This document shows, in pieces, positions 30,839 through 32,115 of a DNA stretch of 32,278 bases. The translations under genes and the position numbers were made by a program. The stretch's first letter is position 1; each line of letters begins with the position of its first letter. Source of the DNA: Campylobacteraceae bacterium (lineage in GTDB: Bacteria > Campylobacterota > Campylobacteria > Campylobacterales > Sulfurospirillaceae); the NCBI GenBank assembly GCA_019162915.1, contig JAFLKZ010000027.1:1-32278 (forward strand), given 5' to 3'. The notes below the pieces were generated by a model, which did no database searches, had not been told where the DNA came from, and worked only from the letters and a program-made list of their open reading frames with translations.

Positions 30839-30937
30839 AAAACTCCACCTACTTTAAAGATTTAATAGAAAGAAAAAAGAAAATATATTATCATATATAC
30901 CGCTCTTCTTCAAAGTTCTTACATGTAAAGGTTATTT

Positions 30938-31612
30938 ATGGATGAAAAATTATTAAAAAAATTAGCAAATTATAGAGTTTTATACGCAGAAGATGATGAT
31001 GGAGTGAGAGAAAATGTCCATGAACTTTTAAGTTTACTCTTTAAAGAGGTCACTCTCGCCTCCGATGGAGAAGAAGCTTATGAACTTTTTTTGCAAAGTA
31101 AGCCAGATTTGGTTATCACGGATATTAAAATGCCTCGCTTAAGTGGGATTGAGCTTGCAAAAAAGATACGCTCACACGATGATGAAGCCCAAATTATCAT
31201 TATCACCGCCTATACAGAAGTTGATTTTATGCTTGATGCCATAGAACTCTCTTTGCTTCGCTACATCGTAAAACCTATCACAGAATCTAAACTTTTTGAA
31301 GCATTGGAAAAATTTTTACAGTTTAAAGAAAAGACAAATTTAAAAGAACTAGCACAAGATTGGTACTACGACAATCTCCAAAAGGTCGTCATACACGAGA
31401 GTGACATCTACGAACTCACGAAAAAAGAATCAAAGTTTATTGAGTTGCTTTTATCCAAAGATTCTATCATCACCTATGAAGAGATAGAACAAAAGCTCTG
31501 GGACAGCGAATACATGAGCCTCAATGCCCTTCGGTTGATGATAAAAAATTTACGTAAAAAATTACCAGAAGACACTTTGAAAAATATCCAAGGCATAGGG
31601 TATAAATTGTAA
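30938..31612 (+). CDS. OmpR-type response regulator
   Basis: YAEDDDGVRENVHELL, DLVITDIKMPRLSGIELA receiver; ESKFIELLLSKDSIITYEEIEQKLW...NALRLMIKNLRKKLPEDTLKNIQGIGYKL winged helix. Confidence 0.93.
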   Translation: MDEKLLKKLANYRVLYAEDDDGVRENVHELLSLLFKEVTLASDGEEAYELFLQSKPDLVITDIKMPRLSGIELAKKIRSHDDEAQIIIITAYTEVDFMLDAIELSLLRYIVKPITESKLFEALEKFLQFKEKTNLKELAQDWYYDNLQKVVIHESDIYELTKKESKFIELLLSKDSIITYEEIEQKLWDSEYMSLNALRLMIKNLRKKLPEDTLKNIQGIGYKL

Positions 31613-31617
31613 TGTGC

Positions 31618-31623
31618 TATAAT
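31618..31623 (+). promoter_or_regulatory. Putative -10 box (TATAAT) for the mntA-like gene
   Basis: TATAAT immediately upstream of the TTTACATGTAAG element. Confidence 0.5.
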
Positions 31624-31652
31624 GTTTACATGTAAGGATAAAGGATCTAAAA

Positions 31653-31946
31653 ATGACAAAAGCTTTCATATTGAATTTTTTAAACGAACACAAAAAAGAA
31701 TTAAATGAAAAATATGGGATCACTAAAATAGGTCTTTTTGGAAGTTATGCAAGAGATGAGCAAACAGATGAAAGCGATATTGATTTAGCATGCGAAATGA
31801 CAAAAGAAAAGAAGACGCTTCATACTTTCTTACAATTTAAAAGAGAAATGGAAGCGGTTTTTGGTAAAAAAGTTGATTTGGGTATAGAAAGCACCTTGAA
31901 GCCTATCGCACGAGAGTACATTCAAAAAGAGATTATTTATGTCTAA
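31653..31946 (+). CDS. MntA-like nucleotidyltransferase (antitoxin of a HepT/MntA module)
   Basis: GLFGSYARDEQTDESDIDLACEM: GSX10DXD minimal nucleotidyltransferase motif; 97 aa. Confidence 0.88.
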   Translation: MTKAFILNFLNEHKKELNEKYGITKIGLFGSYARDEQTDESDIDLACEMTKEKKTLHTFLQFKREMEAVFGKKVDLGIESTLKPIAREYIQKEIIYV

Positions 31947-32115
31947 ACGAGATATTAAGCTTTTCATTTATGATATCAAAGACTTTAGAAACCTTTTGAT
32001 TCATGAGTATTTTGGCGTTGACCATGAAATTGTTTGGAATACCATTTGTAAAGATGTGCCAAAATTGAAAATAACCATCGACCAAATCATCACAGAAATA
32101 ACAAAAGATAATTAA
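31939..32115 (+). pseudogene. Shortened HepT-like toxin ORF (58 aa), internally deleted
   Basis: MSKRDIKLFIYDIKDFRNLLIHEYFGVDHEIVWNTICKDVPKLKITIDQIITEITKDN*; RNLLIHEY = RX4HXY motif; ATG overlaps mntA stop (ATGTCTAA). The usual intervening helices between the N-terminus and the RX4HXY motif are missing. Confidence 0.75.

What the first reader, a model, noticed from the sequence alone, without database searches (positions are those of the whole stretch)
31653..32115. MntA next to a HepT-like toxin missing its N-terminal helices
The MntA-like antitoxin is intact (GSX10DXD). The overlapping toxin ORF is only 58 aa: a HepT-like start (MSKRDIKLFIYDI) joined directly to the HepT C-terminal half with the RX4HXY motif (RNLLIHEY). 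Full HepT proteins are roughly 100-140 aa with additional helices between these parts. The join falls at ...TATGATATCAAAGAC..., where both flanks would normally encode Asp-Ile (GATAT), so a microhomology deletion is plausible. The remaining ORF is still open, so it may be a relic or a retained mini-protein that MntA can AMPylate without toxicity.
Basis: partly seen in the sequence, partly recalled or inferred. Interest (0 to 1): 0.6.

Follow-up and report, generated by a model that had tools for sequence, protein, structure and literature searches.

The report
Toxin gene shortened by a deletion
In a Sulfurospirillum genome, the toxin gene of a common toxin-antitoxin pair has lost its middle through a small in-frame deletion between two matching stretches of DNA, leaving the antitoxin intact beside a probably dead stump; this is a clear but ordinary case of a toxin decaying before its antitoxin.

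Summary
MntA (31653-31946) has an intact GSX10DXD motif and overlaps a 58-aa HepT ORF (31939-32115) that keeps RX4HXY. Two Sulfurospirillum relatives, including strain SCADC, carry 117-aa HepT orthologues in the same slot before the same porin. Against them the window lacks exactly 177 bp (59 codons), including the family's most conserved block, REFEIIGEA.

The break lies between two copies of a 12-bp repeat (Asp-Ile/Val-Lys-Asp/Glu), matching at 10 of 12 positions in the siblings. Both copies are in the same frame, so slippage between them leaves an open frame automatically; the open frame is not evidence of retained function. No other short form turned up among the matches listed from 399 genomes of the order.

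In 24 Sulfurospirillum genomes all 61 HepT hits sit beside an MntA. Five HepTs, this one included, are broken beside an intact MntA. Five more intact MntAs have no HepT hit, and three of those keep only 18-21-aa HepT stubs. A second in-frame deletion, removing RX4HXY itself, occurs in another campylobacterotal MAG.

Most likely this is a recent deletion relic of a type VII toxin with its antitoxin retained. A functional mini-protein is not excluded, but nothing supports it.

The parts
31653..31946 (+). mntA: MNT-type nucleotidyltransferase antitoxin, 97 aa, intact
   Evidence: ORF; PF01909 8.3e-15; NCBIfam MntA_antitoxin 4.6e-12 but below its curated cut-off; 69% identical to the intact orthologues in G007 and G009
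31740..31784 (+). GSX10DXD nucleotidyltransferase motif of MntA (GSYARDEQTDESDID)
   Evidence: sequence
31939..32115 (+). hepT remnant, 58 aa: first 13 residues joined to the last 45 of a 117-aa HepT
   Evidence: ORF; PF01934 positions 82-120; alignment to the full-length orthologues
31972..31983 (+). deletion join: single remaining copy of the 12-bp repeat (GATATCAAAGAC); the exact break lies somewhere within it
   Evidence: alignment A1 and repeat comparison
31987..32010 (+). RX4HXY motif (RNLLIHEY), retained
   Evidence: sequence

Best explanation
This is a type VII (HEPN/MNT) toxin-antitoxin locus whose toxin was inactivated by a recent 177-bp in-frame deletion, while the antitoxin stayed intact. 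Shown: full-length 117-aa orthologues in the same slot, the exact size of the loss, and the flanking in-frame repeat. Inferred: the deletion arose by replication slippage or annealing between the two repeat copies. Also inferred: the 58-aa product, lacking most of helix 1 and all central helices including the REFEIIGEA block, cannot form the HEPN bundle and is not an active RNase. MntA may persist only because the loss is recent, or because it still protects against related HepTs entering the cell (anti-addiction); that last part is speculative.
For: Orthologues in the same slot in G007 and G009/SCADC are 117 aa, and the alignment shows exactly 59 codons missing. The repeat D-[IV]-K-[DE] flanks the missing part: 10/12 identical in SCADC and an 11-bp exact run in L090. 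The short form is unique among the listed matches of 44 family genomes, 399 order genomes and the plasmid collection. In the genus, 61 of 61 HepT hits have an MntA neighbour; 5 HepTs are broken, all beside open MntA frames; 6 MntAs lack a HepT hit, 5 of them intact, and 3 of those keep only 18-21-aa N-terminal HepT stubs. Among the 79 nearest HepT loci in GTDB genomes, 9 are broken; 8 of those 9 have an open MntA, and one, L104, is a second in-frame deletion that removes RX4HXY. AlphaFold: the full-length sibling folds confidently (pLDDT 89, pTM 0.83) and its best PDB match is Shewanella HepT 5yep, although with a weak E-value of 0.009; the 58-aa form is a two-helix hairpin with pTM 0.40.
Against: The remnant shows no further decay: it has no stop, its leave-one-out profile score ranks 13th of 40, and its pN/pS against G007 is 0.33, similar to MntA's 0.27. 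That fits either a recent deletion or continued constraint. Loss of activity was not measured. Raw reads were not available to exclude an assembly fault.
Confidence: 0.85

Rival explanations
1. The 58-aa ORF is a retained mini-protein: a non-toxic RX4HXY peptide that MntA still binds or AMPylates, for instance as a decoy, regulator or MntA stabiliser.
For: The frame is open, RX4HXY is intact and the retained part is well conserved; the overlap with mntA is kept.
Against: An in-frame join is automatic because both repeat copies are in the same frame, and conservation is expected if the deletion is recent. No homologue of the short form was found in the family, order or plasmid searches. R70, which contacts the first AMP in Shewanella HepT (PMC7641770), lies 34 residues ahead of the modified tyrosine; its counterpart was not mapped here but is probably in the lost part.
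Confidence: 0.1
2. The short ORF is an assembly or sequencing artefact: a 177-bp segment was skipped at the 12-bp repeat near the contig end.
For: Draft genome of 202 contigs; the locus is 163 bp from the contig end.
Against: A 12-bp imperfect repeat is shorter than the words assemblers normally use (general knowledge); the flanks are clean and collinear with two relatives; similar toxin losses recur in independent genomes, among them complete single-contig ones, G002 and G007.
Confidence: 0.05

Closest known systems
HepT-MntA type VII toxin-antitoxin (SO_3166/SO_3165 of Shewanella oneidensis, PDB 5yep/7bxo; PMC7641770)
   Same: MntA with GSX10DXD; partner with RX4HXY; adjacent genes; the full-length sibling's predicted fold matches Shewanella HepT best among solved structures
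   Different: The window's HepT lacks 59 of 117 residues, including the REFEIIGEA block and the central helices; even the full-length sibling is only about 19% identical to Shewanella HepT in the structural alignment
Orphan or solitary antitoxins left by decayed toxin-antitoxin loci (for example Klebsiella, PMC7192599)
   Same: Intact antitoxin frame next to a broken or missing toxin
   Different: Here a 58-aa toxin piece with its catalytic motif remains in frame, and the deletion end points can be read off

Membership tests
Type VII HepT-MntA toxin-antitoxin | MNT-fold antitoxin with GSX10DXD | tested here: met
   PF01909 hit and motif at 31740-31784
Type VII HepT-MntA toxin-antitoxin | Neighbouring HEPN protein with RX4HXY | tested here: met
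   RNLLIHEY at 31987-32010; PF01934 over its cut-off
Type VII HepT-MntA toxin-antitoxin | Complete HEPN domain (about 110-140 aa helical bundle) | tested here: not met
   Only profile positions 82-120 match; NCBIfam HepT_toxin scores 27 against a cut-off of 60; 59 codons are missing relative to orthologues; pTM 0.40 against 0.83 for the full-length sibling
Type VII HepT-MntA toxin-antitoxin | RNase toxicity of HepT, neutralised by AMPylation of the tyrosine in RX4HXY | not testable with these tools
   Needs expression and mass spectrometry
A normal short-form HepT family | Several homologues with the same short architecture | tested here: not met
   Only the window aligns across residues 1-58 in the family and order searches; all other listed matches begin at residue 4 or later, nearly all at 9-16, mostly within longer HepT frames; the order list was cut at the weaker end

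The most novel reading that the evidence does not exclude
The 58-aa remnant is expressed and MntA still binds or AMPylates its tyrosine, so that a detoxified HepT fragment serves as a regulator or decoy for the antitoxin.
Probability: 0.06. Interest if true: 0.55.

Novelty: new member of a known kind. Interest (0 to 1): 0.2.

Why it matters
It is a clean example, readable by synteny, of how type VII pairs decay: the toxin goes first and the antitoxin stays. The genus-wide count (no HepT without MntA; ten open MntAs with a broken or missing HepT) fits the expected asymmetry of addiction modules. In this HepT clade a built-in in-frame repeat may make detoxifying deletions easier. The practical lesson is that an open frame after a deletion between in-frame repeats is not evidence of retained function.

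Tried and rejected
Short-form family: rejected, no second example in the family and order genomes or plasmids. Selection on the remnant: pN/pS and profile ranking do not separate a recent deletion from constraint, because the window and its siblings are already far diverged at synonymous sites. Exact junction search in viral contigs: nothing. PDB sequence search with the full-length sibling: nothing, so a fold comparison was used instead. Papers on truncated HepT: none found in the library searched. Promoter and terminator scan: no informative excess.

Full report
Observation. The window is the whole of contig C13 (32,278 bp) of a draft genome of 2.18 Mb in 202 contigs, 78% complete. One of its same-genus relatives is Sulfurospirillum sp. 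SCADC (G009 = L099), so the genome is called Sulfurospirillum here. At 31653-31946 lies a 97-aa MNT-type nucleotidyltransferase with the GSX10DXD motif; overlapping it by 8 bp is a 58-aa ORF at 31939-32115 with RNLLIHEY, an RX4HXY motif. Pfam HepT-like matches only the last third of its profile, positions 82-120, but well above the cut-off.

What was lost. Two genomes of the genus, G007 and G009 (SCADC), hold an orthologous mntA-hepT pair in front of the same porin gene, with HepT of 117 aa. The DNA alignment shows the window to be collinear with both across the pair, apart from exactly 177 bp missing inside hepT. The missing 59 codons include the block REFEIIGEA, which holds most of the family's invariant columns (A41, E47, I49, G50, E51, A52 in alignment A3). 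In the AlphaFold model of the SCADC protein (pLDDT 89, pTM 0.83) the loss takes the rest of helix 6-23, helix 36-53 and the short helices before the motif. The best solved match of that model is the Shewanella HepT-MntA complex 5yep, with a modest E-value of 0.009 but probability 1.00. The 58-aa form is modelled as a two-helix hairpin with pTM 0.40.

How it was lost. In the siblings the missing segment is flanked by GAYATTAAAGAG (Asp-Ile-Lys-Glu) and GAYGTTAAAGAT (Asp-Val-Lys-Asp), 10 of 12 bases identical. In the relative L090 the two copies share 11 consecutive bases. The window has one copy, GATATCAAAGAC, at the join. Both copies are in the same reading frame, so loss of one copy plus the spacer leaves the frame open whatever selection does. 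Slippage or annealing between the copies is the inferred mechanism.

How usual it is. In 24 genomes of the genus, the Pfam search gives 61 HepT hits and the MntA search 67 hits. Paired by position, all 61 HepTs have an MntA directly upstream. Five HepTs are broken: the window's, and four with internal stops or frameshifts (G002, G007, G009, G020), each beside an open MntA frame. Six MntAs have no HepT hit; one of these, on C82, has an interrupted frame with ambiguous bases and is set aside. Around the other five, translated comparison with three HepT queries finds 18-21-aa N-terminal HepT stubs in three (G006, G007 and G023) and no recognisable remnant in two. The broken G002 gene is in the same slot as the window's. 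Among the 79 nearest HepT loci in GTDB genomes, nine are broken, and eight of the nine have an open MntA. One of these, L104 from a campylobacterotal MAG, is a second in-frame deletion: 39 bp lost between two Asp-Phe codon pairs, judging from relatives, which removes the RX4HXY motif itself. In-frame cases are thus 2 of 14 broken genes, not an excess that would suggest selection for shortened proteins. Some frameshifts in MAGs may be sequencing errors.

Relic or mini-protein. The short form was sought in 44 genomes of the family, 399 of the order and the plasmid collection, and no other listed match aligns along the whole 58 residues. The retained C-terminal part scores 13th of 40 against a profile of intact relatives and shows pN/pS of 0.33 against G007, compared with 0.27 for MntA. 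So there is no visible decay since the deletion. Since the divergence from G007 may largely predate the deletion, this cannot separate a recent event from continued constraint. The simplest reading is a recent deletion of a toxin that was costly or no longer needed, with the antitoxin not yet lost or kept for protection against incoming HepTs. Anti-addiction has been proposed for orphan antitoxins elsewhere (PMC7192599), but was not tested here.

Novelty. The system belongs to a known type VII toxin-antitoxin family (PMC7641770), in a decayed state of a known kind. As a HepT it fails the test of a complete HEPN domain, so it should be called a HepT remnant. Not shown: expression, toxicity, AMPylation, and read support for the join.

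Surroundings. In G002, G006, G007 and G009 the order is response regulator, dctP-dctQ-dctM, mntA, hepT, porin (G002 has a further MntA-HepT pair before the porin). In the window the response regulator is followed directly by mntA, and the genome's best DctM match (89%) lies on another contig, C23. The window lineage has therefore also rearranged this locus, or one of the contigs is misjoined. A striking palindrome, TTTACATGTAAA, found 293 times in this assembly and up to 792 times in relatives, is listed separately.

Noticed in passing
window, 12 sites of TTACATGTAA, e.g. 31626-31635 just upstream of mntA and 30919-30928 upstream of the response regulator: The palindrome TTTACATGTAAA is very strongly over-represented: 293 copies in this 2.18-Mb draft against 0 for the reversed control, and 14 to 792 copies in the 23 other genomes of the genus, but 0-8 in one sister genus. 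It resembles the cyanobacterial HIP1 kind of iterated palindrome; no paper linking it to Sulfurospirillum was found. Function unknown; candidates are a methylation site, an uptake signal or a regulator/nucleoid binding site. Probably more interesting than the finding itself.
   Followed up: partly
window 31612-31653; G000 contig C23 6263-9111: The dctPQM transporter genes that lie between the response regulator and mntA in four relatives are absent here and sit on another contig in a different context, so the locus has been rearranged in this lineage.
   Followed up: partly
L104 257-568 (Epsilonproteobacteria bacterium FK_Sedi_A_Bin.72): A second in-frame deletion in a HepT of the same clade, 39 bp between two Asp-Phe codon pairs, which removes the RX4HXY motif itself beside an open mntA frame.
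   Followed up: partly
L184 1243-1299, L185 1121-1174, L187 355-417: Intact MntA genes followed by HepT stubs of only 18-21 residues, the rest of the toxin gone.
   Followed up: partly
L172 9009-15613 and L174 8581-15238 (G007, G006): The stretch around the two porins is crowded with small genes that look like toxin-antitoxin pairs (RelE/ParE-like, Phd/YefM-like, a lone MntA); a local toxin-antitoxin cluster, judged by eye only.
   Followed up: no
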